From: Crambe crambe
Lineage: Eukaryota; Porifera; Demospongiae; Poecilosclerida; Crambeidae
DNA length: 64,000 nt
Reading direction: 5' to 3'
Assembly: GCA_963924555.1 (NCBI GenBank)
Contig: OZ004589.1
Span: forward strand, 6,510,001 to 6,574,000
The stretch's first letter is position 1, and the number at the start of each line of letters is the position of its first letter. The translations under genes were made by a program, and so were the position numbers. The notes under the pieces were generated by a model, which did no database searches, was not told where the DNA came from, and saw only the letters and a list, made by a program, of their open reading frames with translations. Shown piece after piece: positions 2,324-59,949 of the stretch.

Positions 2324-5300
2324 ATGCCGGGCTATCGCCTTTCCCCTAGTCAGATTAAAGACAGTGGCGTATCTAGAGTTTGAGCTAGAAGGGTGCTTGC
2401 TAGCTAGATAATGCGCGCGTAAGCGCGCGCGAAATTTTTGCGAACCACGCCCACTTTTGATTAACCATACCCTCTTTATTATACCCAGATGATGGCCTAA
2501 GTATTAGCTACCCTACTTTACCAGCGTACAGGATCAAAAGTGAGAAGACACTGGTGCAGACTGAATAAAGAAGCACAGAAATTTTAGATCGAGATGTGCA
2601 TTATTTAGGGTAAAAACGTGCCGGGCGCATGCGCCTCGCCGATGTGATTATTGAACTCTGACCCAATGCTGCTCTTTCTGTAAGTGTAATATTAAACTCT
2701 TGCTAGATGATCAGCTTTAAATAATTGGATAGATAACTATAGAAGCGAGCCTACTGAAAAAGCTAGCTAGCAGCTGAGGGGGGTGCTCGAGCACCCTGAG
2801 CACCTCGCTAGATACGCCACTGAAAGACTCTGGGTCTCAGTTTGACAAGTACAAGTGCCACTACTGTCAACTGCTTTTAAAAGACGCAGTTCAGCCTCCC
2901 TGCGGTCATTGGTTGTGTGAATCTTGTGCGGACGAGTTGTCGCAAAGGTAGGCGCCTCCATCCAGGGACTCCTTAGTCTGGCGCAGGCACTTCTGGAACT
3001 CCAGCGTAAGGGTCTGGTAACACACAATACTTCGACTTGTTCCCGACCTAAATTATGTTTGTTATAGCTACTTTTAAAATTTAATCAATTCAATTTATCA
3101 CAAAGGCTAGACTAGCTAGCAATAGAATAAGTATTGGATGAAAAGTCAGCTACCACGCATCATTAAACGTCTGTAGTCTAGTCTCGCGAGCCAGCCTGAA
3201 TATTCCATATACAGTCTGGTCAGACTCGCCAGAATTTTGTGAACAAAAGGAATGCAATTAATTTTAGTCGCGCGGTCAAGTCACACTGAAATCACATGAC
3301 TATGAATTTGGCGCATAGATATAGCGTCTGTTATACGTTAGTCAAATAGAGTTGGCAAAATGCAGTTACAAAAAGTGATTTGCCACTGCCAGTAGGCATG
3401 CTAGCGAAGACATCACTTCGGCCACTTGCAAAAACTGGCTATGATGCGCCTTTGGTTTTCTCTAAAGCTAGACTACTCAAGCCTTTTGATTGCCTCGTCC
3501 ATAGCTAGCTGCCCCTACCTCCTCTTCACTGTGGCTTCTCTTCTCTAGCTACTGCTTCGGTTCATTTTCACGCGCGAGCTAGAAAAAGTAGCAATACGTC
3601 ATCGTGTCACATGATTTATTGAACATCACATGACTACTTTGATCTGATTGGCTCCGCCAAGATTCTGGCGGAGTTCACAAAAACCTGGCCAGTCTGACCA
3701 GACGTATTTTTCTTCCTTTCCCCCTCCCCTTTTCACGCGTGAAAAATACGGCTGGCTTGCGAGACTAATGCGTCGGTTAATATATTCATCGTTTTAGCAC
3801 TAAACGGGAACAAGTCGAAGTATTGTGTGTTACCAGACCCTTGTGCTGAAGTTGCAGTGTCATAGGGTGTAATGTCCCCCTCTTAGAATGACCCAGGGGT
3901 CATTTTACCCTAAGGTGAAGTGACCTGGGGTCACTCTAACCTAGGCTGAAATGACCCCCCTGGGTCACTCAGCCCTAGGCCCCCTGGGTCACTTTGACCT
4001 AGGACCTAGGGTATAATGACCCCTCCCTCCCCTCCCTGTCCCTATACATAGGATGTGGAATTAGGCAATCAAATTATCAATTACTTTCAAAACCACTCGA
4101 TATTTTTTTTCCTTCCATTTGATGGCACAACAGACAGGGTTTCATCTAGGAATTTAGGCCACAGCGAGGGTGCGGATGTGCCCCCTCCCGCACAAAGCCC
4201 GATGCCAATAATGCTTGCTACTCTGAAGTATCCCAAATTGGTCCTTAATTACTCCCTTTGGTGACATGTAACAATTAACCTGTGGTCACCAATGGGAGTA
4301 GCCTTGGGGGGGGGGGGGGGGGGGGGGAAGTTGGTTAGTTTGTGGGGGAAGCTTCCCCCCTGCACCCCCAGTAGATGAAACCCTGACAGAGTGACGTTGC
4401 GTATATAGCTCACAATCACTGCCATTAGCTACCCTGAATTTGCACATTGACGAAACTGATAGCAGCATACTCTTTTTCTCCAGCAGCCACAGCTAGCTAA
4501 AATGTAGTCTCGCGGGCCAACCCTTTACCAAAACATACCTCCCGCTGCACTGATATCGGAAACTGTTGATAATAAATTAGCCAGAGGCTGCTAAAAAACT
4601 GTAAAGGAATATTATTCTGTGATCACAAAAGACGTGCCAAATAATTATAAGAGTCACACGTAGCTACACTTTACTATATGCATGGGGTCACTTGACCCTG
4701 AGGGGGGTCATTTAACCCTAGATTAGAGTGACCCCCGGGTCACTAGAATGACCGGGGGTCACTATACCCTGGGGGTCACTATACCCTCCAACACCGGAAG
4801 TGCCTGGGGTTGGCTACGCCAGACTAGGGACTCCTCGGCTCTAAACTGCATGAGTAATCTTCGAAACCTAGTTGCTACCTTTCACATGTTACATCATAGC
4901 TGTGGCTATCTTTAATATTTTTAACAATGCAGCTTGCCTTTTTGTCCAAATGAGAGTTGTGATGAATCTTTCAAAGATCGAGAAAGCTTGGTAAGTTTTA
5001 TTCATATCAGCTGATTCACCATTGATTTTGATATTGAAGTGATTTATACATAGCACATACAGTTCTTTCCTGACAGATATGTTCAGAGAGAGATCAAGCA
5101 TCTTCATGTTTCTTGCCAGTGGGCACAAGAAGGATGTTACTGGGAAGGAAAACTAGAGGACTATGAAGTTAGTTTATAGGCTAATGAATCATAATCTTTA
5201 GTGCCCTATAGCGATAGCCCTAGTTAAGGTTGTCTAATTAATTAGCTATATATTGCATGTTTCACTGAATACATGCAGAAGCATCTCGAGGAATGTGTCT

Positions 5301-37367: not shown

Positions 37368-38482
37368 CATAGATAATAGAGCACTCCGCGTATCCGTGGA
37401 TATGAAACGCTCCCGGATATTCATTTTCTCGAGGTTTAATCATTGCAGCGCCCATTTACGGAAAACTAATTAAGATTACGTTAAAAATACGGACTTTCAT
37501 AGCTGCATCCAGGAAGAAACTTTAGAAGTAAGTTGCAACAGCAGGATGGTCATCAATGATTATATAATACTGTAGCTAGGTTATAGATACATAGCAGTGT
37601 GATATTATTCAAACAAATTGTTAAAAAGGACAGATATTCAAGAATTTATAAAAATGCTATTCTAAGAGATTTGCAAGAATAATGCTCCAGGTGAATGGGC
37701 AGATGTCCAACAGCAGACCACCACAGTCTTGTGTTCAATAGGAGACAGCAATATCATCATCAGGTGCACTTCCAGAAGGTGTTTGAAAATCTTTTATCAA
37801 ATAAAAATTGCTGTACCACACACATACATTAATGAACAAGTACATTCATCATATAATCTTTTGAACAGCTTGAGATTGTTGGTGCACCTGTGGTTAATAC
37901 CTGCTGATATTCATCGGGTAAAGTGGTAGTGCACAGATGATCAGTCGTAGATGGAAGAGTGCTTATGAAGTTGTGCATGTTATGCCAACAAGATCACCAC
38001 ATTCTCCAAGCACACTGACCTGTGTACTACAATAATACACACAGTTTAAGTGCATCATTCAATAACTTTCTGAAATAATCTAACACAAAATGGAGGACCT
38101 CAATTTTGGAAAAGGTGCCAATACTCTTTTTCCATAGCTTATCATACTAGATTCTCCAAGTATTTGATAAAGAATTGAAGCTCCATGCAAACTAGATTCT
38201 TCTACAATAGATATCCAGTGTAAGAAAATCTAACACAAAGTTGTTACTAGGGAAATCATTCATTTCATTCTGGCCCTCTGCTTGGTCTAAGCAAAAACAA
38301 CAAATTATATTTTTGCTACTAGTCACCTTGTGTATTGTCCACAGTTTCACACTGAAATGACCTGAATCAAGCCCCATGAGAAGTTCCAGCAGCCCAAACT
38401 TAGCTGCAGCCTTGGGAGGGTTGCCTGGTTACATCTCGCGATTTCTTAGTTACACGTTAACAGGAGTGCTCTATTATCTATG
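37368..38482. mobile_element. 1.1-kb nonautonomous TIR element, 7-bp target duplication (copy 1)
   Basis: Identical 20-bp TIRs, CATAGATAATAGAGCACTCC at 37368-37387 and its complement at 38463-38482, are flanked by GTTACAT (37361-37367 and 38483-38489). No protein family is seen inside. A diverged, inverted copy lies at about 52965-53706. The ends and duplication length resemble the element at 41459-42567. It ends 24 bp before the start codon of IgR-A, so it likely contributes promoter sequence. Confidence 0.88.
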
Positions 38483-38506: not shown

Positions 38507-41042
38507 ATGTACCGGCAGCTTCTCTCTGTGTCATTTTTAGTGGTGCTAAATATCACTCTCACATGTGGTAAGTATTATTTGTATAGCTAAAAACTAAACG
38601 CGCGAAAGGTGTGCGCGCAAAGTGTGCTTCATAAAAATTATTAAATCTTCCTCTCCTCATAACTTTGCAGCTGCTTTGTCCATTTATCACCAACGAATTG
38701 CAGGCCAAAATCCAACTTTAACAATCAAACAGGTAGAAGGTGTGGCTGTTTTGGATCTGGGTGGGACTGGTGCAATGGTAAATCATTCTTTTGACTGTAA
38801 TACAACAACTGGGAGTGTTGATGACCTACACTGGGAGAGAGAGGATGGAAATCAATCGAGATTTCCACAGTACAACTTTATGAATAGATGGAGGCTGGAT
38901 ATGGCACCAGGATCAGATTCTCCTGTAGATAATGCGGATACTGGTATTTACATCTGCAGAGATAATGTAACAGGAGATAGTGTATCCATTAACATCACTG
39001 GAGGTAATATATAGCTGCTGTTCAAAGCAATTACTGTGAGGGTAACTAGCTATGTTAAGAGGTGCATAGATAGCTATATGAGTAATTAATTGTAACTGTA
39101 CATTCTTACTAATTGCTTCCTCTCCACATCCCTCCCTTTCCAGGTGCATATGCAATAAGCCCAGAAATGCCAGTTTATGAAATTGCTCCAGGAGGTAATG
39201 TTGTTCTTAGAATATTTGCAGCTGCGAATCCTCCTTTGCGTTCTAATGAGGTCAAGTGGTATGCCAATAGCACTGAAAGGGAGATTGTCACTGGAGAAAG
39301 ATTTCAGCTCCTGGATGGCAACAGGCGTTTATCCATAATGAATGTGCAGCTGGCAGATAATGGAATATATCGTGTTGACATCTGTCGAGTGATTATTCCT
39401 CTTAGCTCATGTGTTCAAGCAAGAACATTCATCGAAGTAAATGTTTTTGGTAAGTCCTAACTTGGTAATCTAAATGTGTACACTGCAATATTCTTTCTAA
39501 TTGAGCCAAATCAGATGTTCTGGCTATATAGCTATGCATATAAAATCGTTCATATTGTAAGGTAAGGTAGCGTATTTCTGGTTACTATTCAGCACTTACA
39601 TTAACATAGTATGCTACTCCTAAACTACAATAACAAGTGACTACCAAAGAATATTTTTTATTTGTAGCCTGCATCCATTGTACTATGCAGCCATGAAAAA
39701 TTACATCTGTCAAATTATTTCATTGAAGCGTCTAATTTCGGTCACCCTCAAACTTCATCTGGAAATAAAAATTTCTCACATATAGGTAGATAGCACTAAT
39801 TCCTTGTCTAACACACTCTGTGTTTTGTGTGCTTCTGCTATTAAAACAGTTGCACTATCTTGGGGCAACATGGTGCTATACACCCATTTACTGACCTTTG
39901 ACCACACTCTTTATTTGTACCACCATAACTGTACATCTGCCCCGTTACAGGAATTCCGATGGCAGTGATAACCTATGAGGACACCTCCATCAGCAGACAG
40001 GTGCAACTAGAACATGGGGACCCTCCCCCCAGTTTCTTCTGTGCTGCCAGAAACTCCTCTACATACACTGTCATGTGGATGGGGCCATTTGAAGACGGGA
40101 CATTCCCCAACGGAGTGACTCAGAATAACTCGATGATGCGGCAGGTCCTGATGTGGAGCAGGGCAGTTGAGTACTCTGACTCTGGACAATACAGATGTAT
40201 TGCCAGCAACTCTAATGGAGATACTACAGCTGTTCTGAGCCTACTGGTCAGACGTAAGTGGTCTAATTATGATAAGCAGATAGCTAGGTCGGTCAGATCC
40301 AATTACCCAATATCATTACCTTCACCTTAAAGTGAATGATACATGTAGTGATCATAAAGGTGGTGATCATAATACTTTGTTAAATATGTAGTGAATGATA
40401 CGTGTAGTGATCATAAGATGAATGATACATGTAGTGATCATGATTACTTTGTGATCATAATATTTTGTTTACACAGAACGTCCAAGTATCAAATCCATTT
40501 CTGCCCATCTTCCTGTTTCTGCTTCTTCTTCTTTCCAGTTTGTCATCCCCCTTGGTTACTCAGGGCCTGTTCTTAATTGCACTGCCCATGCTTGGCCAAA
40601 CCCCTCTATTCAGTGGCTGAAAAATGGGCAGAGACTCACTGGACAGATAGTATCAGAATCTTCCATCATGCAAAATCAAGCTATAGCATTATTGAGATGG
40701 ACATCAGGATTTTTGGAGTCAGACGGAGGGAATTACAGCTGTTTTATCCAAGCAGATGGAATGAATTCAGTCAACAATACGTATACCATCACACTGACAG
40801 CTAATATTTCAACGATTGCTCCCCCTCCACTTAACTGCACAGATGGATCAGCAGAGTGTACAAATACTAGTCTTAATGCTGTCCCTCATGGTGCCATAAT
40901 TGGAGGCTCCGTGGGTGTCTTTGCACTACTCTTCCTCATAGGTTTTGGACTTCTCATCATTATCCTCTCTGTTTGGTACAATCATAGCAAGAAAAAAAAC
41001 AAGGTCAAGGTCACTCAAATGACTGTTGGTCGTGGCTATTGA
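38507..41042 (+). CDS. IgR-A: four-Ig-domain type I receptor, short tail
   Basis: Five exons: 38507-38567, 38671-39003, 39144-39449, 39951-40253 and 40477-41042; 522 codons. Exon 1 encodes a signal peptide (LLSVSFLVVLNITLTC). Each of exons 2 to 5 begins with one Ig domain, and every intron is phase 1, so domains are exchangeable modules. Ig signatures: DTGIYIC in domain 1, DNGIYRVDIC in 2, DSGQYRC in 3, and GGNYSC with C-x(n)-W in 4. Asn-rich glycosylation sites are frequent. After a Thr/Pro stalk comes a transmembrane helix (GVFALLFLIGFGLLIIILSV) and a short basic tail. No kinase or other intracellular domain is seen. Closest relative is IgR-B. A role in adhesion or self-recognition is possible but not shown. 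Confidence 0.88.
40330..40470. repeat. Imperfect tandem repeat in IgR-A intron 4
   Basis: Units of about 20-25 bp built on GAATGATACATGTAGTGATC recur four times. The corresponding intron of IgR-B has only one or two units. Confidence 0.7.
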
Positions 41043-41458: not shown

Positions 41459-42567
41459 CATAGATATAAGAGGTTTTACGGGATTGGAAACGCCCAATGA
41501 ACTGCACAACCGAGGCGCGTTGACAGATGCGCACGCGCATGCAGCATTAATTATATTAATGGCCGTGAAAGGAGATCAATATTCACTCCTTTCAAGGCAG
41601 TTAAAGTGATGTTCTGCCCCTACAGCTCACAGAATAGTACAAGTAAGCTAAGGGGAAGGTATTGAAGAAGTGAAGAGTCAGAGAGTTGAAGTTGGAGAGT
41701 CTGAGGAAGGAAGTTATTAATTATTCATAACTTTTTTCCTTGTAATTATAACTATGAGTACCTATCATTGCTCATTATACATTAATTTTATGTGATTGAT
41801 TTGAAAGAAAGGCCAGAATGACTTTTGGTATTAAAATTAGACATAAATTCATCATTATTATAGCTAGATAATTTTGCCCCAAAGTTATCCGCCAGTTTCT
41901 GCTCAGTTCTCCCTCATCAGCATTATTGCAATACTTCCAGCTTTTGGCTGTTGGATTTTGACACCATCCACCTCAAGAATTCGGCTCAGTCAGCTGTCCT
42001 GTGGACCCTATGGATATTAGGGGGGAAATATAGTAAGCTTGCCATCTCCATAGGATGACTATTGTATAGAAAACGAATGCACCAATTCCATTTACTGTTC
42101 TATCCTTTCCCTGAAATAACTAATACAGTTGCAATATTGTTAATCTATTTCTTGGGAGAGGGATTACAGTTTTAACACCACTTGCAAATGCTAGAGACAA
42201 TATATGTCAGCTAATACAAAAACTAACATTACTATTCCATGTAGCTAAAGTTTACATGCCTTTTGATCAGAAAATGGGCAACAGCAATTGATTCTATCAA
42301 GCGTGAGAGGGATTATAGTCCCATTAACCACTACAGTAGTATTTGTAGGATTAAACTTGAAAATCTGAGCTAAAATTTATTTCATACAGTAAATCTATGC
42401 CCTAGTGTATTATAGTATCATTGGCATAAGTCGTACCTCATGGATCTTGTCAGAACAGCAACTTTGACAAAAGTGCTATGTCATTCAGCTGTCAACGCGC
42501 CTCGGTTGTTAGTTGCTAACGAGAGCACGTGATCCGTTTCCAATCCCGTAAACCTCTTATATCTATG
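41459..42567. mobile_element. 1.1-kb nonautonomous TIR element, 7-bp target duplication
   Basis: The TIR begins CATAGATATAAGAGGTTTAC-like sequence (41459 onward; it continues through GGGATTGGAAACG) and is matched by the complement ending at 42567. CTACGAT flanks both sides (41452-41458 and 42568-42574). A second inner inverted pair (CGAGGCGCGTTGACA) lies further in. No coding capacity is seen. Confidence 0.87.
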
Positions 42568-43029
42568 CTACGATTAAAGTGTTAAGCTACTACCATAGCT
42601 GGCTGACAAAGTAGACTAGATTATGGTGGCTTTTTAGGGCCACTTCCTTCAATTCCAGTTCCACTCTACTGCCACTCTACTTCCACTCTGTCATAGCAAT
42701 TTCCACTCTACTTCCACTCTGTCATGCCGATTTACACTCTACTTCCACTCCAATTCCACTCTATTTCCACTCTGCTTCCACTCTATTGTGCATGCGCAAA
42801 AACTCGTATACGTGGACATTTCTTGATGGCTGAAGTCTTGATGGCTGAAGAGAGAGGGACCAAAACTACTTCTAAACGAGAAGAAGGTTGTAGTCCTCTT
42901 CTTTCTTTTTTACTGCTAGCTCTATTTTAGCCTTAGCTAATTATATGCGGATTGCAAGGCAGAAAAAGAAATTACCCAACTGCAGCAATGAACCTGACCC
43001 ATTACAGGGACAAATGCTTGTAAGTTAAA

Positions 43030-45979
43030 ATGGAGCTGCTTAAGCCAAATAGCTACCCATCTATGCAGATCAGTATTGGAAGGATGGAGTATGATTTTGA
43101 GAAGATGAGAGGTATTATGGATAGATCATTTGCATCCATCAAAATTGCCTTCCACAAAGATAGTGCTTCTTTGGACGTGCTCAACAAGTGCTGTGAAACT
43201 GTTTGGGGCAGTAAAAAAAAACTATGAGTATTTTTTAGCCGATGGATCTGGCATAGCAATTGATTCCTGCTCATTTGACCTCAATTTGCCAGATGGTTCT
43301 AAGGAAACCTTGCCTTGGACTTTGAGTAACTACCTCAGAGTTTCAAATGTGAAATATCCCTCTCGTGTACGTTTGTATTGTGTGAGGAAGCTTCGTACTG
43401 GTATGTCAGTTTTAAACAAGTAATACATTTTAGCTATATATTTATAATAATAAACAGGGAAAGGATCAGATCAACAAAAAAATCATCGAAAAAAAAGTTG
43501 CTGATGCAGGTAATATTAAATACATACAATGAGTCATGGCTGATAATTATAATCACAATAGTACAAAGGAAGAGGTCGGCTGAAGAAGTAAATGAACCAG
43601 GTTAGAATATAGCTAGCAACTATTATTGACATAGTTTTAGTAGTGTACATAAATAGCACAAAAAAGATGTTCTACGAACTCTCAACAGACCCCACCTGGT
43701 TATTTTGAAGTAACTTTTGTGACCAAAAAGAAGAGTCTGTATCGTGATGTCTATGTATTTTCATGTGGAATGACACAACAAACTGTTTTGTCCAATCATT
43801 ATGATGATGACATTGAAAGGATGATGGAGGTTCGTGATTATATTGAGGAGTCACCTGATAATCTGCATCTCTTTGAAGATAATCCTCTAGAAAGTGACTC
43901 TTTCTTGTATGAAATAGACACTGGTGAAAGTAAGTGGCCTCATGATCATTCCCATCCAGCTGTATTATGTAAACTCCTGTATACAGAAGTATTTTCATTC
44001 ATTGATGATATGGACTCTAACAGTGGTGAAGTGAAATATGTTACTCCTAATGCAGGTAACTAAGTATACCATTTTTGTGATAAAGTGCATGATAGAATAA
44101 TTATTCCTACTAGAATCAGAATTTGATGTATGGAGTGGATGCTATGCTATATCCAGAGTAGCACTCCTGGCCTGCATTGCTTTGAATGGCTATCACGGGA
44201 TAGCTACCTATGGTTGGCAATGCAATAGTTCACCATTATCGAATGTTACACCCCTTCAGTACTGTTCTGCTGCTGGTACATATACGTGCACTGTGTCATG
44301 TGCAGAATTCATAACTGCTCGTCAATTTATAGTTGAAGGTAATGGGCCTAGAGCAAGCTTGATAGTATAATGCAATTCTTACACTGTACTATTGTTTTCA
44401 CAGGTGCAGAACATAAATTTACAGCAAAGCTTAATGAAGGTGAACATATCCTGTTACCTGTATTGTAGCATTCTATTCCCTATAGAAACATTATAATAAA
44501 TTGCAATGCCACACCCTCTTTCCCTTCCTGTTTCTGTGATTCCAAGCTGTGAGCAAACGACTAACAAATGAACTAACAAAAACAACTTCAAGCCTTTTTT
44601 CCCCCTAATAATCATGCTTTCTCTATAGAGATGTTATAGTGTACCACTTCCTCCAACTACCCAGACCAGTAGTTATCACTACACAGTATTGAACTCTTTT
44701 TGAAGTCTTAACTGCCAAACCACAGTTATAATTAGTTATTACAACATTGCTGGTAATGGGAAAAATTATGTGCCTGTCACAATTATTATTATCATCATTG
44801 ACAACAGACTGTACAACCCGAAATGAGCCAGATGGCGTGCAATCTGAAGTGGAGGTCATAGGAGATGATATATTGACAAAGTCTGCATCTGCCACCAAAG
44901 ATAGCAAGTATGTGGCAGCAGAGGATTTTGCTCACATTATTGAGTCTTGTAAGAGTGAGTTATAGTATTCTTTTATGGCAATATTAATACCCATTTATAA
45001 ACAGATCCAATGGGTATAAAGTTAATAGAATTGGTAGGAGGAGGAGCATTTGGGCAGGTATATAAGGCAGTTTGGAGGGGAAGTGTTGTTGCTGCTAAGG
45101 TTCTTCATGGAAACATGAAAGTTATTGAGAATGAATTGAATGTGTACAGGTAAATCTCATGTTTTCCACAAAATGAATGAATCATAATGAATGTGTAACT
45201 ATAATAATGAATGATTTATAGAACATTACACCATCCAAATGTATTGACATTTATGGGGATGGTTGAAGAGCCAGGAAAAGTCATACTGATTACAAACTTT
45301 ATAGCAGGACTGAATTTATTTGACTTAATGCATTCAGATAAGAAGGTGAACAAAATTTTCAGCTAGCTAGCTATAGCTAGCACTTATGGTAATCACACTG
45401 ACAAAATTATTTTGCTTCAGATTGTACTTGACTTCAAAGAAAAGATATTTATTGTTCAGCAAATTGCCCAAGCTTTGGTATTTATGCACACATATGATCC
45501 ACCTATTGTTCATCTTGACCTCAAGCCGGAGAATATACTTGTAGGTTGCTAGATTATTTTACATACTTACCATCATTATGATCTTTAATTAACAGGTTGA
45601 ATTAGTTACGTATCGTGTATCTGTTGCTGATTTTGGACTAAGCAAAATCATTCCCACACTAGGAGCTGGCCGTACCACAATGCAGGCTGGAACACCTGCA
45701 TTTCAGCCTCCAGAGCAGTTGAGAGGAGAACTCTGTGGTGTCGGAAGCGATGTATATGCTTTGGGATGCATAATTACAGAAGTATTCGGAGAGAAGGAAA
45801 TTTGGAATGGTTTAGCACCACATACGATCATTTTGAAAGTTGCAGGGGGCTCGTATCCTGACATATCTCATCTTTCTCCTGGAGTGAAGGAAGTAGTGCA
45901 GATATGCTTTGTTCCAGTAGAGCAAAGGGCATCTGCTGCAGATGTGTTGGGTGCAATCTGCAATAGCCTTCTAGATTAA
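43030..45979 (+). CDS. Protein kinase with Ig-like module, cargo of the TIR transposon
   Basis: Coding exons: (43030) 43069-43400, 43458-43509, 43562-43600, 43657-44055, 44114-44338, 44404-44439, 44808-44954, 45005-45149, 45222-45345, 45421-45540 and 45596-45979. An upstream exon (about 42963-43019) and an ATG at 42826 may add an N-terminus. Exons 44114-44338 encode an Ig-like fold (LLACIALNGY, W, then YCSAAGTYTCTVSC). The kinase domain follows: GGGAFGQVYKAVW glycine loop, VVAAKVL lysine, VHLDLKPENIL catalytic loop, ADFGLSK and a PPE motif, so catalytic residues are present; His-Leu-Asp replaces HRD. The type resembles tyrosine-kinase-like Ser/Thr kinases. No signal peptide or transmembrane helix was found. 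Two A runs (43213-43221 and the 8-A run at about 43489-43496) each hold one base too many for the best frame. Confidence 0.8.
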
Positions 45980-46094
45980 CTATTATTCATTTCATACCTG
46001 TGGTTCATCATACTAGCTAGCTATAGCTATTGAATTGATCTCAGATTCATTGTTCATTCTTATCTCAGATTCATACATGTTTGTTACTTATGGT

Positions 46095-47755
46095 TCATTG
46101 TACCATGGAATTAATGTTATTCAGCAAATCAAAATACAATTCTAATGCTTCTGTTGGAGTTTCCGGCAGATGAAGGTCTTCTTCTTCCATAATAATGTGT
46201 GCCAAATTAGTAAATTCTCTACTAGTAGGTGGTAGCTTTTCACAGGCATATTGCCAACACAACTGTAAGTCACCATCAGTACATTCACAAGAATGGTCTT
46301 CATGACCTATTATACATAAAAATATTTAGTGAATTACATTATTATTGTGTTAGCTAACCTCTAATTTCAGGCAGATAAAAAAGCTCATCTGGGATTCCAT
46401 CAACACAAGTACTGGTGTTATGCCTAATTCGGTGCATGTTCCAAGCAGTCACCATTTTGTCCAGATCAGCCTGGATTAGATTGGTGAAGGCAAATTTCAG
46501 GCAATCCCTACATGAAGTTGATGCATCATAGTCACTTCATGTTTTAGCAAAATATCCTTACCTCTGGGTGGAGTCTGAATCATCATAGTAACCTTCATCT
46601 CGAAGCATCTACAATATTCTTACTATTGTCATTTATAACAGTACTTTATTACTAAGTTTCACCTTAAAGAAGCGAATCCAGAATCCAGTACACCACTGAT
46701 AAAGATGCCCCCACCAACGTTCAATTCTCTGATAAGAAATGCGATTAGCTAGTTAGTCTAAACTTCTCTGATAATTCTCACTTGATTACTGACTGATCTC
46801 CCATAGCGAAATGAATTTCGAGCGAAGTCATCACTACACTGATGCCTCAAGAAAGGTTGCATAAATGCAATTTTTGCATTTTCTGTGCCCCTGTCTGCAC
46901 GAACAACTTTAGGACAACCTATTTGCATGTGATTAATTATTGATTATAAACTATAGATATTGAGTAGCTAAGAGTATTCTTACCATACTTCTTGACAGCA
47001 TCCAGATAGTAGCCAGCAATGACTTTTGAATCTTTGTTTGTAGGGCATACTTCCAACCATAAAATTTTGCGGGAATATCTATTATGAAACACAAAATTAA
47101 TGTACATACATGCATCCATGTAATTAATTACCCATCAATTCCTCCATGAATAGCAAAGTCAAAAGGTAGCAACTTGTCGTTGCCATCTATGTGCCAGCAA
47201 TAGTTAGGGCCCTATCAACACCATAATAATATTATTATCAAGCTGTACACTAAGTTAGGGGTTATCCACCTTGGATGAGTAAACTCTCCTTTTTAATCTA
47301 TTTTTCTTTCTAGAATTTACACCTTCGGGATCAATATAAGAAAGCATTATTCGAACTTCTTCTCTACAAGAGGAGTTGATATTGAACCAATAGAGCTTAG
47401 TTATTGCAGAGTTAACCTTGATATACTCAGTTTGTATCTCTGCTGTAGTCGAAAGTGCATGGCACGATATCCTAATGATGAGCCAGACTGGGAGAGTTCA
47501 AACTACAGAAATAGCTAAATAGGTGACTGTCCAACTAGCTAAAACTTTGATATAATGTACCTGTACGTTTTGAAAGGCCCTTGCAATATCTGTTTGTACA
47601 CCTCTCCTTCTGAGACCCATTTTATGCAAAGTACGTTTTAAAGTTCTCAGTGATACAACAATCCCATGAAGACTAGCCAGAAAGCATAATATCAAGTTAT
47701 AAGAGTACCCTGCTTCAAAATACAGCCTAACTAAACTTCTTGCATCATCATCCAT
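46095..47755 (-). CDS. DDE (rve-type) integrase/transposase, intact, ten exons
   Basis: Exons 5' to 3': 47561-47755, 47417-47502, 47270-47363, 47132-47211, 46984-47078, 46782-46918, 46663-46728, 46562-46608, 46359-46507 and 46095-46306; 386 codons with every phase consistent. An N-terminal helix-turn-helix-like part (GIVVSLRTLKRTLHKMGL) precedes the catalytic core: Asp in WHIDGNDK (about residue 134), Asp in VRADRGTEN (about 192) and Glu in RIERWW (about 232), a D-D-39-E spacing. SRKILWLEV is a family landmark. It resembles the integrase-core proteins found as multi-copy genes in cnidarians and fish. It should act on the flanking 160-bp TIRs. The exon 2-3 intron (47364-47416) is only 53 bp. 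Confidence 0.92.
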
Positions 47756-48272
47756 TCTTCAACTCTTAAATTAGCTAATCAGGAACAAAGTGGAAGCAGA
47801 GTGGAAATAGAGTGGAATTGGAGTGGAAGTAGAGTGTAAATCGGCATGACAGAGTGGAAGTAGAGTGGAAATTGCTATGACAGAGTGGAAGTAGAGTGGC
47901 AGTAGAGTGGAACTGGAATTGAAGGAAGTGGCCCTAAAAAGCCACCATACTAGATTCCTTGATTCCACTACTGACAGTAGTACCAAAGCGACGTGTGTTG
48001 TTTTTAATAATACTACTTGTAAACCTCCTCTGTCGTTGACATAGCTATTAGCTAGCTATCTGAGATCATGGCGATCAAGAAAGATATCACCTTTATGAAC
48101 CAAGGAAGATCTAGAAGATCTTGCGTGCATGCGCATATCGCGGTCTAGCGCGTAGCTAACGCCATCGCGTTTGTTTTTTTTTCTTGCATTTTTATTTATA
48201 GAAACGCTGGCGGCTTGACTGCTTTTCTGTGTCATAGCTATTAGTAATGTTTAACTTAGCACTGATACGACG

Positions 48273-50590
48273 ATGGTATTGTTGAACCGGCAGCTTCTCT
48301 CTGTGTCATTTTTAATGATACTTAATGTCACTCTCACATATGGTAAAATATTCACAGCTAGCGTTGTAGCTAATTAAACCAAGCGTGAATATTAAAATTA
48401 ATGTAACTAGCTAGCCTAGCTGCACATAGACAACCATAATTATAGCTATAGATAGTAAACGCGAATCTATGGTGCATGCAGCCCTTAACTGTGAGAATAA
48501 GAGTTGCATGACCACTTGTTATCAATCTACTACATGTGCATATTATAGCTATTAAATCTTCCTCTTCTAACTTTGCAGCTGCTCTGTCTATATATCACCA
48601 ACGAGTGATGATAATTGCAGGCCAAAATCCAACTTTAATAATCAAACAGGTAGAAGGTGTGGCTGTTTTGGATCTGGGTGGGACTGGTGCAATGGTAAAT
48701 CATTCTTTTGACTGTAATACAACAACAACTGGGAGTGTTGATGACCTACACTGGGAGAGAGAGGATGGAAATCAATTGAGATTTCCACAGTACAACTTTA
48801 TGAATAGATGGAGGCTGGATATGGCACCAGCATCAGATTCTCCTGTAAATTATGAGGATACTGGTATTTACATCTGCAGAGACAATGTAACAGGAGATAG
48901 TGTATCTATTGACATCACTGGAGGTATGTGTTCGTATAGATAGCTATGAGAGAAATTGTAACTTGCTAATATAATTCACACAGGTGCATATGCAATAAGC
49001 CCAGAAATGCCAGATTATGAAATTGGTTCAGGAGGTAGTGTTGTTCTTGGAGTATTTGCAGCTGGGTATCCTCCTTTGCGTACTAATGAGGTCAAGTGGT
49101 ATGACCCCAGTAGCAGTGAGAGGGAGATTGTCACTGGAGAGAGATTTCGGCTCCTTGATGGTAACAGGCATTTATCCATAATGAATGTACAGTTGGAAGA
49201 TAATGGAACGTATCGTGTTGACATCTGTCGAGTGATTCTTCCTTTAAGACCATGTGTTCAAGCAACAACAACCATTGAACTAAATGTTTTAGGTAAATCC
49301 TATAGCTTGGTAATTTAAAAGTGTGCACTCACTGCAGCTTTGAGCAGTGATAAGCTGATAAATAATAAAGGTGTGCATCTATGTGACTCAGTTCTAACTA
49401 GAGGGGCTCTGCTTGGATCTGACCTCTTAAAAGTGAACTCATCTTTGTCAGTCCTCAAGTGTCAATTGTACACCACTGAACTCTGACCTCTTATGTTCCC
49501 GGACCTGAATAGAGGGGTGATATGACACTATACATGTACACTCACCTCCTACCTTTCTCTAGCGAGGTCTTCTTTGGCCACACTCTTTTTTGTACCACAA
49601 TAACTGTACATTTGTCTCGTTACAGAAATTCCGATGGCAGTGATAACCTATGAGGACACCTCTATCAACAGGCTACATGTGCAACTACATAGAGACCCTC
49701 CCCCCAGTTTCTTTTGTGCCGCCAACAGCTCCTCCACATATACTGTCATGTGGATGGGGCCATTTGAAGACGGGACATTCCCCAACGGAGTGACTCAGAA
49801 TAACTCAATGATGCGGCAGGTCCTGATGTGGAGCAGGGCAGTTGAGTACACTGACTCTGGACAATATAGATGTATCGCCAGCAACTCTAATGGAAATACT
49901 ACAGCTGTTCTGGACCTACTGGTCAGACGTAAGTGGTCTAATTATGATAAGCTGATAGCTAGGTCGGTCAGATCATATGTTATTACCTTCACCTTAAAGT
50001 GAATGATACTTGTGTAGTGATCATATATACATGTAGTGTCATAATACTTTGTTTACACAGAACGTCCAAGTATCAAATCCATTTCTGCCTATCCTCCTGT
50101 TTCTGCTTCTTCTTCTTCCAAATTCATCGTCCCCCTCGGTTACTCAGGGCCTGTTCTTAATTGCACTGCCCTTGCTTGGCCAAACCCCTCCATTCAGTGG
50201 CTGAAAAATGGGCAGAGACTCACTGGACATATAGTATCAGAATCTTCCATTATGCTAAATCAAGCTATGGCATTATTGAGATGGACATCAGGATTTATGG
50301 AGTCAGACAGAGGGTTTTACAGCTGTTTTATCCAAGCAGGTGGAATGAATGCAGCCATCAGTATCACCACACTGACAGCTAATATTTCGACTACTACTCC
50401 CCCTCCACTTAATTGCAGAGATGGATCAGGAGAGTGTACTACTCCAACTAACACTAGTTTTAATGTTGTCCTTCAATCAGCCGTAATTGGGGGTTCCGTG
50501 GGAGGCGTCCTTGGAATCATCATCGTCATAGGTCTCGGAGTTCTCATTATTGTCCTCTTTGTTTCGTACAACCGAAGCAAGAAATACTAG
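48273..50590 (+). CDS. IgR-B: four-Ig-domain type I receptor, very short tail
   Basis: Five exons: 48273-48342, 48579-48923, 48984-49292, 49626-49928 and 50061-50590; 518 codons. It has the same architecture and intron phases as IgR-A and long stretches of near-identical DNA, including introns, so the duplication is recent. Signal peptide QLLSVSFLMILNVTLTY; Ig domains 1-4 with DTGIYIC, DNGTYRVDIC, DSGQYRC and RGFYSC; stalk rich in Thr/Pro; transmembrane helix (GVLGIIIVIGLGVLIIVLFV); tail of about eight residues ending SKKY. With no signalling motif it would need a partner or act as a decoy or adhesion molecule. It begins about 320 bp after the right end of the kinase transposon. Confidence 0.88.
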
Positions 50591-52964: not shown

Positions 52965-53706
52965 CCTTGATTCAGGTCATTTTAGTGTCAGGTTAATTAA
53001 ATTTTGTTGACTTTGCTTAGACCAAACAGAGGGCCAGAATGAAATGAATGATTTCCCTAGTAACAACTTTGTGTTCAATTTTCTTACACTGGATATCTAT
53101 CGTAGTTTGCATGGAGCTTCAACTCTTTATCAGATACCAGGAGAATCTATATAATAAACTATGGAGAAAGAGTATTGGCACCTTCTCCAAAATTTGAGGT
53201 CCTCCAGTTTGTGTTAGATTAGTCATTGAATGACGCACCTACATAAACTGTGTTTATTATTGTAGCTGGGAGAATGTGGTGATCTTATTGGCATAACATG
53301 TACAACTTCATAAGCACTCTTCCATCTACGACTGATCATCTGTGCACTGACCAGTTTACCCAACGAACATCAGCAGGTATTAACCACAGGTGCACCAACA
53401 ATCTCAAGCTGTTCAAAAGGTACTTGTTGTTCATCAATGTAGCTTGATTTTCAAACACCTTCTGGAATTGCATCTGATGATGCTGTCTCCCATTGAACAC
53501 AAGACTGTGGTGGTCTGCTGCTCTTTCACCTGGATCTTTATTCTTGCAAACCTCTTAGAGTAATATCTGCATCTGCAATAATATCACAATCACTGATGAC
53601 CATCCTTGCAACTTACTTCTTCCATGAAAGTCCGTAATTTTCCGTAAACGGGCGCTGCAATGATTAAACCGGGAGCGTTTCATATCCACAGAGTGCTCTG
53701 CTATTA
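52965..53706. mobile_element. Inverted, diverged copy of the 37368-38482 element
   Basis: Read on the minus strand, 53706 down to about 52965 follows the other copy: GAGCACTC end, GTGGATATGAAACGCTCCCG, TTTAATCATTGCAGCGCCC, then after a gap the ATCTAACACAA and CTGGCCCTCTG segments. Several hundred bases of the interior are deleted. It lies directly before the IgR-C start codon, as its relative lies before IgR-A, but in the opposite orientation. Confidence 0.8.
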
Positions 53707-53717
53707 ATGGTGATACG

Positions 53718-56700
53718 ATGGTGTGGTTTCAGAACCTCTTCACATTATTTTTAGTGGTGCTTAATGGCACTCTTACCCGCTGTAAGTGTTTTGCATAGCT
53801 AGCTAAAGTGTTTTGCATAGCTAGCTAAAAGCAGTAGTTCTAGCTACCAGCTATAGTGGCTACTTATCATTTATGGGAATTGCATGGCCTGATTGACTTC
53901 CTCTCCTTTCTATTTCAAGCCATTTATAATTAACTTTGCAGCAACTCTGTCCATTTATCATGGACGAATCGTATTTGTTCAAGGCCAACATCAAGGTGCA
54001 ACGATTAATCGGGTAGAAGGTGTGGCTGTTCTGGACCTGGGTGGGACTGGTGTGATAGTGAATCATTTTTTTCAATGCAACACATCAACTGGGAGTGTTA
54101 ACAACCTACGTTGGGAGAGAGAGAATGGAAATCTGCCCCGATTCCCACAAACCATTATAGTGAATAGTCAGAGGCTAGATATGGCACCACCAGGTGGTTC
54201 TCCTGTGGGTTATTCGGATGCTGGTGTTTATGTCTGCAGAGACACTGTCACAGGAGCTAGTGCATCTATTAACATCACTGGAGGTAGATACTATGTACAA
54301 TTAAGTGCTACGAGGTATAGAGAATATATATCAGGTTACTCTGTGATAGCTACGAGGGTTGGCTTTGTTTACATGTGAAATTATTACAGTAAATTCTTGC
54401 TAATTGTTTCCTCTTCACTCCCCTCTCCTTCCAGGTTCATATGCAATCTGCCCAGATATGCCTGATTACGACATTGCTTTAGGAGGTAGCATTGATCTCC
54501 GAGTGTTTGCAGCTGGGAATCCTCCCTTGAATACCAATGAGGTCAGGTGGTATGGTCCCGGTAGCAATAGGAGGGAGGTCGTTACTGGAGGGAGAATTCA
54601 GCTCCGTGACAGCAATAGACGTTTGATCATAATGAATGTGGAGTTGGCAGATGGTGGAACATATCGTATTGAAATCTGTCGAAATATTGCTGGGCCCCTT
54701 AGTCCTTGTGTTCAAGCAACAACAACCATCGAACTAAATGTGTTAGGTAAGTCTAAGCTTGGCATTGTTGCAAGCAACCGAGGGAGGGAGGAGGGAGGGA
54801 GGGGAGGAGGGAGGGAGGAGGGAGGAGGTAGGAGGGAGGGAGGGAGGAAGGGAGGAGGGAGGGAGGGGAGGGAGGAGGGAGGGAGTGTGAGATATACAAT
54901 ACCCTTTATTGTCATCCAATATCATTACACAATCTGGCAATTAAAACAACAGCTAATAATTTCACAGTCTGCCTGCAAGGAGCTCAGATTTCATTATTTC
55001 AGCAGTAATTATTACATTTGCTTAATTTTTATGTGATTATATTATTATGGGTTTTTTTCAATCCTTTGAATTGACTACCTCCAAGCTCCGTGTAATGAAG
55101 AAGCCATGCAGAAATCAGTACCAGCTACTAAGTTGCCTTAAGAGTGATCAAACCTCAATTGAAACTGTAGTGACATTTTTATAACTTAGCTGGCAAGGAC
55201 TCTGGAATTTCTGTTTTTTTTTTTTGTTTTTGTTTTTTTTGTTGTTGTCGTTGTGTTTTTGTCCCTCCACAATTTTTGACTTTAGGGCATGAAAATTTGG
55301 AGCTAGCTATTAGCTCTGTTGTATATCAATCTGTTGGGTTACTGTCCATGTTATGTTTCTCCTCTCAGTGGGTCCAGCCCTAGTGTCCAGTCCTTCCTCG
55401 GTGGTGGTTGCGGAGCACAATGCTACTATACTCACATGCGAGTTCACTGGCAATCCTCAACCTTCAATCATATGGGAGAAAGAAGGAGGGAACTTACCCC
55501 CAATGACACGGCGAGATATAGACTTTATACCTTCACCAAATGCCACAAGTATATTGGGCAGAGTAAGTGCACATTATATTTGCTTCATAGTCACAAACAC
55601 TTCAAGGAAAAACAATTCCTCCATGAAGATTTTACTGAACAATGTAATACAGGGGCGGATCCAGGATTTTGAAAGGGGTATTTTTTATTATCCGCATGCT
55701 TGTGCGCGGAAAATTTTGCCAAGCCACGCCCACTTTTCTTAACCACACCCTTTTGTGCCCACTTGATGTTTTGCAAAAAATAAAAACATTACAAGACACT
55801 TAGTATCCAGCAATTTTTATTATTGGTAATGCAGCCGATCTGTGGCATGCTGTTAGATATAAAAACATACCCAAGCCATGCTAATACAAACCACATTGGC
55901 AAACCATTGTGGCATGCTGTTAAATATACAAACATGTGCACTAATACTATTAAGTGTGCTGGCTGTAGCTTAGCATTGTGCCTGAGGGCCAATGCTGCAA
56001 TAACAAAGTCTATAGACAACCAGCTAGTAGGGGTAGTTCGTTGGAATACAATCCTAGATCCGCCACTGTAGTAGCTAGAGCCATCATGATCATGAAAAGT
56101 AGCTTGCCTTTTTTCAATAAGTTAGTCTTTTAAAACTTAAAGACTAGGAATGCCTTGGCATGACTTCAGTGCAACCTTTATTAACAAACTTTCTAAATAA
56201 TGTGCACTGAGCAACATAGCTTATTGTAGTAAGGTTGGTATTTACACAGCTAGTATTCTTGCTGTTCAATGCTTTCAAACTGCCGTTTTGAATGATTTTC
56301 ATGCAGCTTGATTGAAGTATGTGTACTGGATTCTTTCATTAGATTCTCCTTCAACATGAACGATCACCTAGTTTGTGTACTCTCGTCAGTTCTCTGCATG
56401 GGCTTGATTTGTTGGCAAAGACGGCCAAGAAGCATCAGCACTCTCTTCATGGTGTAGCATTACTGCGTAGTGACTGCGAGCCTGAGCCTGAGCCTGTCTG
56501 TTTATCTTTAGTACTGTAGTAGAGCTTGAAGTTGTGTTGGCTAGCTAGCTAGTAGCTAGAGAGCTTGCTAATGCACGTGCTCGATACGCATAACCACGCA
56601 TCATTGCACGCATGTGCAGGGATTAATACAGAGGTCGTGAAAACCTGGGATTCCCCCCCCCCAAACCTAGAGTGTCCCCACCCCCCTAACCATTCCCATT

Positions 56701-57887
56701 CCATTGAAAACATAAAATACAGTTCATGCGTCTATTTTGTATTTTAAAAATGTCACTAAAGTTTAAAATTAAGCTCCTAACACAGATCTGACATTCAGCA
56801 TACATGTCATGTCGTCCATACAATTTTCTCTCTCTCCCCCCCCCCCCCCCCCCCCCCCCACTCCCCCCCAAGCAATATCAATCCCTGACGTACCATCATA
56901 GTTGCCTTCGGCACTCTGGTGCCGAGGCAAAAAATTATGATTGACTTTTCTTATTTCCAGGTAATTGGTCGGTTTTCTATCAGCAGTGTTCTGTATGAGG
57001 ATCGTGGAAGATATAGGTGTGTTGCATCTAACGGGAATCCTGTGGAAACAGTGAGGTCTGCATATGGAGAGCTGATCGTACAACGTGAGCAATTTCATTT
57101 AATTAACGTGTATTCGTAATCACTACTCCTCATCTTTGACTTGCAGCCAGACTCATGTTGACTGCTGTGGATAACAGTGGAGCCCATGCCATCAACCGAA
57201 TCAGATTATATTTCGTCACAGAAGGCTCAAGACTTGAAATTCGGTGTAATGGGTCTGGTTCTCTCTTCTGGAACTCATCTTCCCAAGCTCTCATTCCAGT
57301 GGAGACAGTGATCAATCCATCCGTTAATGTGTATCAAAGGCATGATCTGACAAACAACAGGCAAACCCTGACAATTCAGAATTTCACTCGTACAAACACA
57401 GCCACTTACACATGCTCAACTAACCTCACCTCAAATGGCAACTCCATAAGTGAATCAGTCTTCCTTACTAGCTGTAAGTGAGATTAAAGCTGAGTCAGTT
57501 TCCCCACATCAAATATTCCTCAAAGCTCCAAGAAAGCTCTTCCTTTAACTATCTATATCTTTCTCCTTAGCTGATCCTGCTGTGTATATTCCAGAGGATG
57601 TCAAATACATAACTCGAGGAGAAACTGTTTCAATAACAGCTTCTGTCTACAGCTCCCCTCAAAATACTCTTGTAGTCGAGTGGTACCACAATGATATCCT
57701 CATTGATGCTGCAAACCGTCCTCGTTACTCTCTCAGTATGAGTGCAGATGGGGTAATGCGTACTCTGAATGTCCTGAATGCAGACACTGATGTTCTGGGG
57801 GAGTATGCAGCAGTTGTTAGATCACAGGGAAGGAATGAAACTGAAAGAATCCGGCTTGAATTGCCCAGTATGTTGCTGCATAGTTTT

Positions 57888-57938
<51 letters not shown>

Positions 57939-59949
57939 CATTATCATGTCACTATCTTCTTCCTTTCAGCCCCTCCCACTTCTACTGTGATTCCTACATC
58001 TCGTTCTGTATCTGAAGGAGAGGAAGTCCAGTTCCAGTGCCAGGTGAATGGAACTGAGCCTAGCATAGTGTGGACTATGGAAGGAAGCCAACCCCTTCCC
58101 ATTGGTGTTCAACAAGTGGGTAACAATCTTGTAATCCAGTCTGCCACTCGGCTTCATGCTGGCCATTACCAGTGCACTGTGACAAATATAGCAGCTGATG
58201 TCGCCACAAGTTTTGCAATGCTGACAATATTCTGTAAGTACTGTAACAGTTTATTAGGAGTCAATTCAGGATCTCCCGCAATAATGACACTTTAATCAGT
58301 AAAAATGAACGCTATCTTCTGTCCCCAAGTGTCAACAGTATCATTACTGAACTCTGACCTCTATATCCTCTTTTCTGACCACATCTTCTTTGGCCACAAT
58401 CTTTATTTGTACCCGCCATTCCCATTGCAGATATTCCCACGGCAGTGATAACCTATGAGGACACCTCTGCAACTTCCATCAACCAGCTATTACAGGTGCA
58501 ACTGGAACACGGGGACCCTGCCCCTCATTTCTCTTGTGCCGCCAATGGCTTCCCCTCACCCACTGTCGTGTGGGTGGGGCCATTTGGAGATGGGGCTTTC
58601 CCCAATGGAGTAACTCAGGCTGACTTGACAACACGGCAAGTTCTGGTATGGAGCAGGGCAGCCGAGTCCTCCGACTCTGGACGATACAGATGTATTGCCC
58701 GCAACTCTCAGGGAAATAGTACAGCTATCATGGACTTGCTGGTCAGACGTAAGTGGTGTAGTTATAATCAGCACTGCAATCTGATTGGTCGGACAGATAT
58801 CAATGTGTTGACAGCATTAATTACCTTCATCTTAAAGTGAATGATGATGATCAAAAATATATTTTTGTTTACACAGAACGTCCAAGTATCATATCCATTT
58901 CTGCCAATCCTCCTGCTTTTACTTCTTCCTCTTCCCAATTTATTGTCCCCCTTGGTCACTCAGGGCCTGTTCTTACTTGCACTGCCCTTGCTTGGCCAAA
59001 CCCCTCCATTCAGTGGCTGAAAAATGGGCAGAGACTCACTGGACATATAGTATCAGAATCTTCCATCACATTAAATCAAGCTGTGGCACGATTGAGATGG
59101 ACATCAGGATTTTTAGAGCCAGACAGAGGGAATTATACCTGTTTCGTCAAAGCAGATGGAATGAATTCAGCCAGCAGTACCATCACACTGGAAGCTGGCA
59201 CTTCAACTACTGCCACACCCTCTCCCCCTCAAGTGGACTGCACAGTCAGATCAGCCACAGTTTCATTTCAGATTCGTGTTCTAGACACAGACTGTTCAGA
59301 GTGGGGGGATACTTTGAAGCAGCACATTGCCAACACTTTCTCTGATGACCTTATGAACATCATCAGTATTGAATGTCAAAACTGCAGCATCTCAGCTGCT
59401 AACTTGCAAATCATTGATATACCAAGATGCAGTCAACTGATTGATAGAGGAGCCGTTTTCAGGGGAGAGATCACTTCAAACGAAATCAGTCAAACTGAGA
59501 AAATATTCTGTGCCTTAAACAGATGGCAAATTCATGGACCTTTAGTCCTGATCAATAACCAGACGCATCGTGTGGATCAAACCTGCAGCCTAAAATCCAC
59601 AGGTTCAGAGTGTTCTTCAACTAATCCCAACACTGTCCCCCTGAATCTCATAATTGGGGCCTCCATAGGAGGTGGCCTTGGGCTCATAGGTCTCCAGTTT
59701 CTTTTCGTCCTCTTCTGTTGTTGCTTCTGTCATTATGCAAACAGAGAGAGCAGGAATCATGAGTTTACAGTCACCAAGTGTGCAGCTTATGGTACTGCCA
59801 CTAATGAAAGCAGGAGTCATCATGAGTTTACAGTCACTGAGTGTGCAGCTTATGATACTGCCACTAATGTAACTCATATCAATCAAGCTATGGAAAGTGA
59901 GAGAGAGCCACCAGACGAAAATGAGAGGCTATATGAAGATGTTTTTTAG
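53718..59949 (+). CDS. IgR-C: eight-Ig-domain receptor with extra membrane-proximal domain and tyrosine tail
   Basis: Ten exons: 53718-53781, 53942-54283, 54435-54746, 55369-55562, 56961-57084, 57147-57473, 57571-57867, 57970-58233, 58431-58748 and 58877-59949; 1104 codons. After a signal peptide, exons 2 and 3 match domains 1-2 of IgR-A/B; exons 4-5 encode one split Ig (LTCEF, DRGRYRC); exons 6, 7 and 8 each one more (exon 7 lacks the cysteine pair); exons 9 and 10 match domains 3-4 of A/B. Exon 10 continues into a cysteine-containing region of about 130 residues not seen in A/B (about 59230-59590), a transmembrane helix (LIIGASIGGGLGLIGLQFLF) and a tail of about 75 residues with a duplicated HEFTVT-CAAY-TATN unit and a terminal NERLYEDVF. 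It may signal through tyrosine phosphorylation; the ligand is unknown. Confidence 0.88.
54781..54885. repeat. GGGA/GGAGGA polypurine tract in IgR-C intron 3
   Basis: About 105 bp of almost pure GGGA and GGA units on the plus strand, immediately after domain 2. It can form triplex or quadruplex DNA. Confidence 0.85.
55650..56068. mobile_element. hAT5-like nonautonomous element in an IgR-C intron
   Basis: The ends CAGGGGCGGATCCAGGATTT and, inverted, CAGTGGCGGATCTAGGATT flank 419 bp. The 5-bp flanks TAATA and TAGTA differ at one base. It shares the AAAATTTTGCCAAGCCACGCCC segment type with the element inside TRAF exon 1. Confidence 0.75.
56836..56859. repeat. C run of about 24 bases
   Basis: A long C homopolymer followed by a shorter C run in IgR-C intron 4. 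The length is uncertain. Confidence 0.75.
57889..57938. repeat. (TTG)n microsatellite in IgR-C intron 7
   Basis: About 16 TTG units lie within a 102-bp intron, so the repeat makes up half of it. Confidence 0.85.

What the first reader, a model, noticed from the sequence alone, without database searches (positions are those of the whole stretch)
42615..47956. A recently inserted DNA transposon carrying its own protein kinase
Perfect 160-bp TIRs and ACTAGATT duplications bound one unit that holds an intact DDE integrase and a complete-looking kinase with catalytic residues. Kinase cargo in a cut-and-paste element is, as far as I know, not a described arrangement. The kinase could phosphorylate the transposase or host factors, act in host defence, or be a captured host gene. 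It also landed inside an immune-like receptor cluster.
Basis: partly seen in the sequence, partly recalled or inferred. Interest (0 to 1): 0.92.

Follow-up and report, generated by a model that had tools for sequence, protein, structure and literature searches.

The report
Jumping gene with its own kinase
A recently active cut-and-paste jumping gene, in what is probably a sponge genome, carries besides the enzyme that moves it a protein kinase that related elements also keep and that selection appears to maintain, so such elements may use a signalling enzyme to help themselves spread.

Summary
Observation largely holds. The element is 5,328 bp, with 161 bp of perfect terminal inverted repeats (TIRs), a 6-bp (not 8-bp) target duplication CTAGAT, an intact 386-aa rva_4 (PF24764) DDE transposase and, tail-to-tail, an 11-exon gene ending in a TKL-like kinase domain. 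The window's kinase gene is 2 bp short in exon 2; two other copies are open for 675 aa. Diverged relatives (kinases 35-58% identical) share the layout; four are TIR-bounded. The 11 kinases form one clade apart from 15 sampled host kinases, and the gene shows purifying selection: an old component, not a fresh capture. Ends and duplications fit IS3EU/GingerRoot. In this genome 23 of 88 related transposase loci have a HECT ubiquitin-ligase match tail-to-tail, 12 have this kinase, none both; TIRs were not found around the three non-kinase loci examined. Precedent: fungal IS3EU families with alpha-kinase genes (PMC12730594). I found no report of a conventional kinase in one, but Repbase was not available. 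The function, promoting transposition by phosphorylating transposase or host factors, is inferred.

The parts
42616..42621 (.). left 6-bp target site duplication CTAGAT
42622..42787 (+). left terminal inverted repeat, outer 161 bp perfect; holds nine CCACTC sub-repeats, several 11 bp apart
42945..45979 (+). kinase gene, 11 exons (42945-43019, 43069-43400, 43562-43600, 43657-44055, 44114-44338, 44404-44439, 44808-44954, 45005-45149, 45222-45345, 45421-45540, 45596-45979); 675 aa where the frame is open
   Evidence: this exon set gives one uninterrupted 675-aa frame in L025 and L028; no transcript data
43219..43219 (+). place where the window copy is 2 bp shorter than the five other copies (frameshift in exon 2)
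45005..45979 (+). last four exons, encoding the TKL-like kinase domain (GGGAFG, VAAK, HLDLKPEN, DFG); stop codon at the end
   Evidence: Pfam PF00069 E 6e-40; best solved structures CTR1, TNNI3K, B-Raf
46095..47755 (-). transposase gene, 10 exons, 386 aa, rva_4 integrase core with D134, D192, E232
   Evidence: (PF24764 E 4.6e-43)
47784..47949 (-). right terminal inverted repeat
47950..47955 (.). right 6-bp target site duplication CTAGAT

Best explanation
This is a cut-and-paste transposon of the IS3EU/GingerRoot kind with two genes that run towards each other: an rva_4 DDE transposase, and a multi-domain protein ending in a TKL-like protein kinase. Shown here: the unit has moved, the kinase moves with it, the association predates the subfamilies found, and the kinase gene is under purifying selection. 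Inferred: both proteins are made, the kinase acts in the nucleus (a basic RKR...KR stretch resembles a nuclear import signal, by eye only), and it raises transposition by phosphorylating either a host factor in silencing, repair or cell-cycle control, or the transposase. That related transposase loci have a HECT ubiquitin ligase in the same place points to an accessory protein-modifying enzyme with host targets. I give about 50% to a host target, 25% to the transposase itself, and the rest to other roles.
For: Both genes lie inside matching TIRs in 9 elements: window, L025, L026, L027, L028, L033, L034, L055, L056; 6-bp TSDs flank 7 of these 9. The kinase gene is open for 675 aa in 2 of 6 family copies, the transposase for 386 aa in 4 of 6. 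Among six copies the kinase gene has 17 nonsynonymous and 16 synonymous changes against 9.0 synonymous expected (P 0.007). Over the last kinase exon (62-125 codons), window against L032, L033, L034, L054, L055 gives dN 0.31-0.43 and against L056 0.71, with dS about 1.8 or more, or saturated. Indel events are 2.0 per kb in kinase exons and 15.2 per kb outside exons. The 11 element kinases are one clade (97/93) against 15 host and 5 external kinases. H[LF]DxKPxN is seen in 9 of 11 and DFG in 9 of 11 stitched sequences. The metagenome kinase P0157 falls inside the clade (98/95 with four element rows). Of 88 transposase loci, 12 have the kinase and 23 a HECT match tail-to-tail; chance 0.02 and 0.07.
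Against: No expression, kinase activity or transposition was or could be tested. In 4 of 6 family copies the kinase gene is broken (window, L026, L027, L029). For the kinase domain alone the within-family signal is not significant (6 nonsynonymous, 5 synonymous, P 0.17), nor for the transposase (P 0.10). The 15 host kinases are chosen single-exon hits out of a longer list, so a nearer intron-rich host relative could be missed. When more external kinases were added and three rows dropped, the whole clade had only 81/79 support. Identities and trees of relatives rest on stitched tblastn pieces. Two of the 11 clade members (L058, L059) show no transposase in the 4.5 kb fetched.
Confidence: 0.8

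Rival explanations
1. The kinase is a recently captured host gene, carried as neutral passenger cargo and decaying.
For: Four of 6 family copies have an interrupted kinase gene. The genome holds many other kinases.
Against: Kinases of related elements are 35-58% identical to the window's yet one clade; the non-element hits listed in the genome are about 27-34% identical. Selection and the shared layout in 9 TIR-bounded elements argue for use.
Confidence: 0.07
2. The kinase modifies the transposase alone, as an autoregulator of transposition, and has no host target.
For: Both genes are kept together in the same elements and converge.
Against: HECT matches in the same place at related transposase loci fit a host-directed role at least as well. 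No phosphosite can be tested here.
Confidence: 0.25
3. The element is a vehicle for a defence or immune gene useful to the host, and its place in a receptor cluster reflects that.
For: It lies between two receptor-like genes, one of them with Ig-family matches.
Against: Only one of six copies is known to lie there; the flanks of the others differ, and their neighbours were not examined. Another high-copy repeat ends about 50 bp to the left, so the spot has taken more than one insertion.
Confidence: 0.04
4. TIRs and gene pair are an assembly artefact.
For: None found.
Against: Further copies on C15, C12, C9 and C3, 97-99.7% identical in aligned parts, three of the four with their own TSD.
Confidence: 0.01

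Closest known systems
IS3EU / GingerRoot DNA transposons (PMC10045372, passages seen)
   Same: TA..TA termini, 6-bp TSDs, integrase-like DDE transposase
   Different: The word kinase does not occur in that paper's text; this element adds a TKL-like kinase gene
Fungal TET-bearing IS3EU families with an alpha-kinase gene (PMC12730594, passages seen)
   Same: TAYGG..CCRTA ends, 6-bp TSDs, a kinase gene in opposite orientation to the transposase
   Different: There an alpha-kinase (a separate kinase superfamily, from recall) plus a TET/JBP gene, in fungi; here a PF00069 kinase, no TET/JBP gene seen, in an animal-like genome
rva_4 transposase loci with a HECT gene in the same genome (L076 and others)
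   Same: rva_4 transposase and a tail-to-tail accessory gene in the same position
   Different: HECT ubiquitin ligase instead of kinase; L076's transposase lies in a separate clade; no TIRs found in the stretch fetched
Ginger1 transposons with OTU or Ulp1 protease domains (PMC2836005, passages seen)
   Same: Integrase-like transposon that carries a protein-modifying domain, for which the authors suggest a part in transposition
   Different: Domain is a C-terminal part of the transposase and acts on ubiquitin/SUMO; different superfamily
TKL kinases CTR1, TNNI3K, RAF
   Same: Best-scoring solved kinase domains by sequence
   Different: HLD in place of HRD, own N-terminal domains without a Pfam family, mobile

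Membership tests
IS3EU/GingerRoot DNA transposon | 6-bp target site duplication | tested here: met
   7 of 9 TIR-bounded kinase elements and one MITE-like copy, L031; L027 and L055 have none
IS3EU/GingerRoot DNA transposon | TA..TA termini (TAYGG..CCRTA in rust-fungus families) | tested here: met
   TATGG..CCATA in the window; TACGG at one end of L025 and TACGG..CCGTA in L056 also fit
IS3EU/GingerRoot DNA transposon | integrase-like DDE transposase without an HHCC zinc domain | tested here: met
   PF24764 rva_4, D134/D192/E232; no zinc-binding family among Pfam matches up to E 1; judged by Pfam only
IS3EU/GingerRoot DNA transposon | transposase groups with Repbase IS3EU or GingerRoot sequences in a tree | not testable with these tools
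   Repbase sequences not held
eukaryotic protein kinase (PF00069) | Pkinase family match and catalytic K, HxD, DFG | tested here: met
   PF00069 E 6e-40, PF07714 E 1e-28; motifs
TKL group of kinases | closest relatives are TKL kinases | tested here: inconclusive
   CTR1 (E 7e-36), TNNI3K, B-Raf and KSR2 lead among solved structures, but named hits in the large protein search include plant kinases and vertebrate myosin light chain kinases, and no full kinome tree was made
eukaryotic protein kinase (PF00069) | kinase activity | not testable with these tools
   needs an assay
alpha-kinase (as in fungal IS3EU) | alpha-kinase domain | tested here: not met
   Pfam matches of the kinase domain up to E 0.001 are Pkinase, PK_Tyr_Ser-Thr and ABC1 only

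The most novel reading that the evidence does not exclude
IS3EU-type elements have a fixed place, tail-to-tail with the transposase, for an accessory protein-modifying enzyme, which different lineages fill with a conventional kinase, a HECT ubiquitin ligase or (in fungi) an alpha-kinase, because each disarms the same host response to transposition. This would be a transposon counterpart of viral kinases and ligases, and the first conventional protein kinase known as a selected core gene of a cut-and-paste transposon.
Probability: 0.3. Interest if true: 0.88.

Novelty: new variant of a known kind. Interest (0 to 1): 0.74.

Why it matters
Cut-and-paste transposons are usually thought to need little beyond a transposase. 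A lineage that has kept a signalling kinase through subfamilies whose kinases are down to about 35-40% identical, in a genome where related transposases have a ubiquitin ligase in the same place, suggests that these elements actively manipulate the cell, as viruses do. Open copies make this testable: does the kinase raise transposition, and what does it phosphorylate?

Tried and rejected
Superfamilies with 8-bp TSDs (hAT, P, KDZ, from recall) were dropped once other copies showed 6-bp TSDs. A poly-A-rich stretch at 43458-43509 was first read as an exon; leaving it out gives open frames in L025 and L028, so it is taken as intron. Pfam gave no family below E 0.1 for the four upstream pieces of the kinase protein tested (best hits E 0.13 and 0.2). 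Structure predictions of two upstream exons were poor (mean pLDDT 38 and 67) and no fold search was made; an Ig-like look of the second is by eye only. A search for an empty paralogous site within the window found none, and the left flank is itself a repeat. The protein search with 675 aa gave 36 hits, generic kinases; the one with the C-terminal 392 aa gave P0157 (43% identity), whose contig could not be inspected. Ten paper searches were made. Searches listed nothing and one search was too loose to use. One search listed 11 papers with both IS3EU and kinase; only PMC12730594 was opened, the other ten were judged by title. Passages were also seen of PMC10045372, PMC2836005 and PMC9587614. The GingerRoot paper (recalled) is not held. 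Whether the N-terminal domains of kinase and HECT proteins are related was looked at by eye and not tested. TIRs were sought and not found in L076, L077, L078 and L054, nor in L032, L037, L057-L060; in L036 only an unrelated 16-bp repeat turned up.
Full report
Observation. The inverted repeats at 42622-42787 and 47784-47949 match over 166 bp at 99%, the outer 161 bp perfectly; 20 random chunks of equal length from window 1-41300 gave at most 61 bp. The window lies at G000:C12:6510001-6574000, an assembly of 143.1 Mb in 119 contigs that is not named. Of the transposase homologues that bear a species name, the best is from the sponge Halichondria panicea, 54% identical over 87%, so a sponge host is likely but inferred.

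Other copies. A TIR search of the genome gave 24 matches. I fetched 13 regions around them. Four hold full-length copies of this family, L025, L026, L027 and L028 (97-99.7% identical in aligned parts; L028 carries a 1.2-kb insertion in the transposase gene and a longer left TIR), and L029 holds a copy cut after about 4.5 kb. All six, window included, carry kinase sequence and at least part of the transposase (exon matches). The window and L025 copies are 99.66% identical, so insertion is recent. L031 is a 186-bp TIR-only derivative with a 6-bp TSD.

Target duplication. Of seven TIR-bounded kinase elements examined (window, L025, L026, L027, L028, L033, L034) six have exact 6-bp duplications outside TATGG..CCATA ends (L025 has TACGG on one side); L027 has none. 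L056 adds GGATCC, and L055 has none. This fits IS3EU, whose complete families have TA..TA termini and usually 6-bp TSDs (PMC10045372, passages) and, in rust fungi, TAYGG..CCRTA ends (PMC12730594, passages).

Genes. The transposase has 10 exons and 386 aa, matches PF24764 rva_4 (E 4.6e-43) and has D134, D192 and E232 with 39 residues between the last two. It is open in 4 of 6 copies: window, L025, L026, L027. The kinase gene has 11 exons; the model yields an uninterrupted 675-aa protein in L025 and L028, which supports the splice sites, while the window is 2 bp short in exon 2, L026 has an in-frame stop, L027 two nonsense codons, and L029 is frameshifted. The kinase domain matches PF00069 (E 6e-40) and is nearest CTR1, TNNI3K and RAF among solved structures. 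No Pfam family came below E 0.1 for four upstream pieces.

Relatives. Regions around seven of the remaining kinase and transposase hits were fetched, besides those. L033, L034, L055 and L056 are TIR-bounded elements with kinase and transposase converging. L032 (right end only), L054 and L036 show the same layout without both ends found. L057 has a kinase with transposase scraps and L037 fragments of both. L058 and L059 have a kinase with stops and no transposase in 4.5 kb; L060 has a transposase and no kinase in 4.5 kb. Identities to the window, over stitched tblastn pieces, are 35-58% for kinases and 45-67% for transposases. L056's kinase, 39% identical, keeps GQGSFG, HLDVKPAN and DFG.

Selection and origin. 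Among the six copies the kinase gene has more synonymous changes than neutral placement of the same changes would give (16 against 9.0, P 0.007); the kinase domain alone (5 against 3.1, P 0.17) and the transposase of five copies (7 against 4.3, P 0.10) lean the same way without reaching significance. Between subfamilies dN/dS over the last kinase exon is 0.13-0.24 for four relatives; for L055 and L056 dS is saturated. In a tree of 31 kinase domains (11 element, 15 host chosen from the hits, 5 external) the element kinases are one clade at 97/93. With eight further external proteins added and three long-branched rows dropped (P0003, P0009, L062), the metagenome protein P0157 groups with L056, L036, L057 and L059 at 98/95, so the lineage seems not confined to this genome; support for the whole set was lower there (81/79). 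The transposase tree also groups L032-L034 together and L036 with L056, and separates the nine kinase-type rows from L076, L077 and L078 (100/100).

A second filling of the slot. HECT domains were sought in the genome. I compared 88 transposase loci, compiled from the printed rows with exon hits merged, with 25 of the 160 kinase matches and 71 of the 120 HECT rows (one or so per locus). On the opposite strand within 3 kb of the transposase 3' end, 23 of 88 have a HECT match, 12 of 88 a kinase, none both, 53 neither; chance expectations are 0.07 and 0.02. Six of the 12 are the window's own family. The 'neither' class is inflated: L036 has a kinase that one search did not print. Three kinase-less loci were read. 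L076 has a HECT gene (E 2.4e-10); L077 has only a sub-threshold HECT match (E 0.0013, 18.9 bits against a cut-off of 23.9); in L078 no accessory domain was identified. No TIRs were found around these three, so they are IS3EU-like by transposase only.

Precedent. PMC12730594 (passages) states that all TET-bearing fungal IS3EU families have the TET/JBP gene between transposase and alpha-kinase genes in opposite orientation. Ginger1 transposases carry OTU or Ulp1 domains (PMC2836005, passages). I found no report of a conventional kinase or of HECT genes in IS3EU in the ten searches listed under Tried and rejected; Repbase and the GingerRoot paper could not be consulted, so this is not proof of absence.

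Mechanism. Shown: past mobility, co-mobility, age of the association, selection on the kinase gene. Inferred: expression, nuclear action, and phosphorylation of a host factor or the transposase that raises transposition. The parallel with HECT ligases makes a host-directed role my first choice.

Noticed in passing
L076:1175-2281 and 2590-3783 (G000:C9:3774001-3780500); 23 loci: rva_4 transposases with a tail-to-tail HECT ubiquitin-ligase match; six loci (C9, C8, C1 twice, C5, C16) have equal lengths and near-equal scores, as a recent family would.
   Followed up: partly
window 42022-42567: The left flank of the element is part of another repeat with at least 39 other copies at 99-100% identity in the genome: a very recent burst of a different element.
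   Followed up: no
window 38508-40994, 48283-50584, 53722-59255: Tandem repeats of receptor-like genes, two ORFs with Ig-family matches; the kinase element lies between the first two.
   Followed up: partly
window 37858-38312 and 52995-53419: Inverted repeat of about 450 bp (85-96%) that bounds a 15-kb stretch with two receptor genes and the element; possibly another mobile element or a local duplication.
   Followed up: no
G000:C7:17313, 57269, 97221: Three TIR-like ends 40 kb apart on a 115-kb contig, suggesting a 40-kb tandem repeat.
   Followed up: no
G000:C14:4116074-4665979 and similar groups on C12, C13, C6: Many clustered host kinase hits, like tandem arrays, among the weaker rows.
   Followed up: no
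P0157 (jgi metagenome, 1,263-bp contig): Kinase from an unassigned metagenome that groups within the element clade; its genomic context is unknown.
   Followed up: partly
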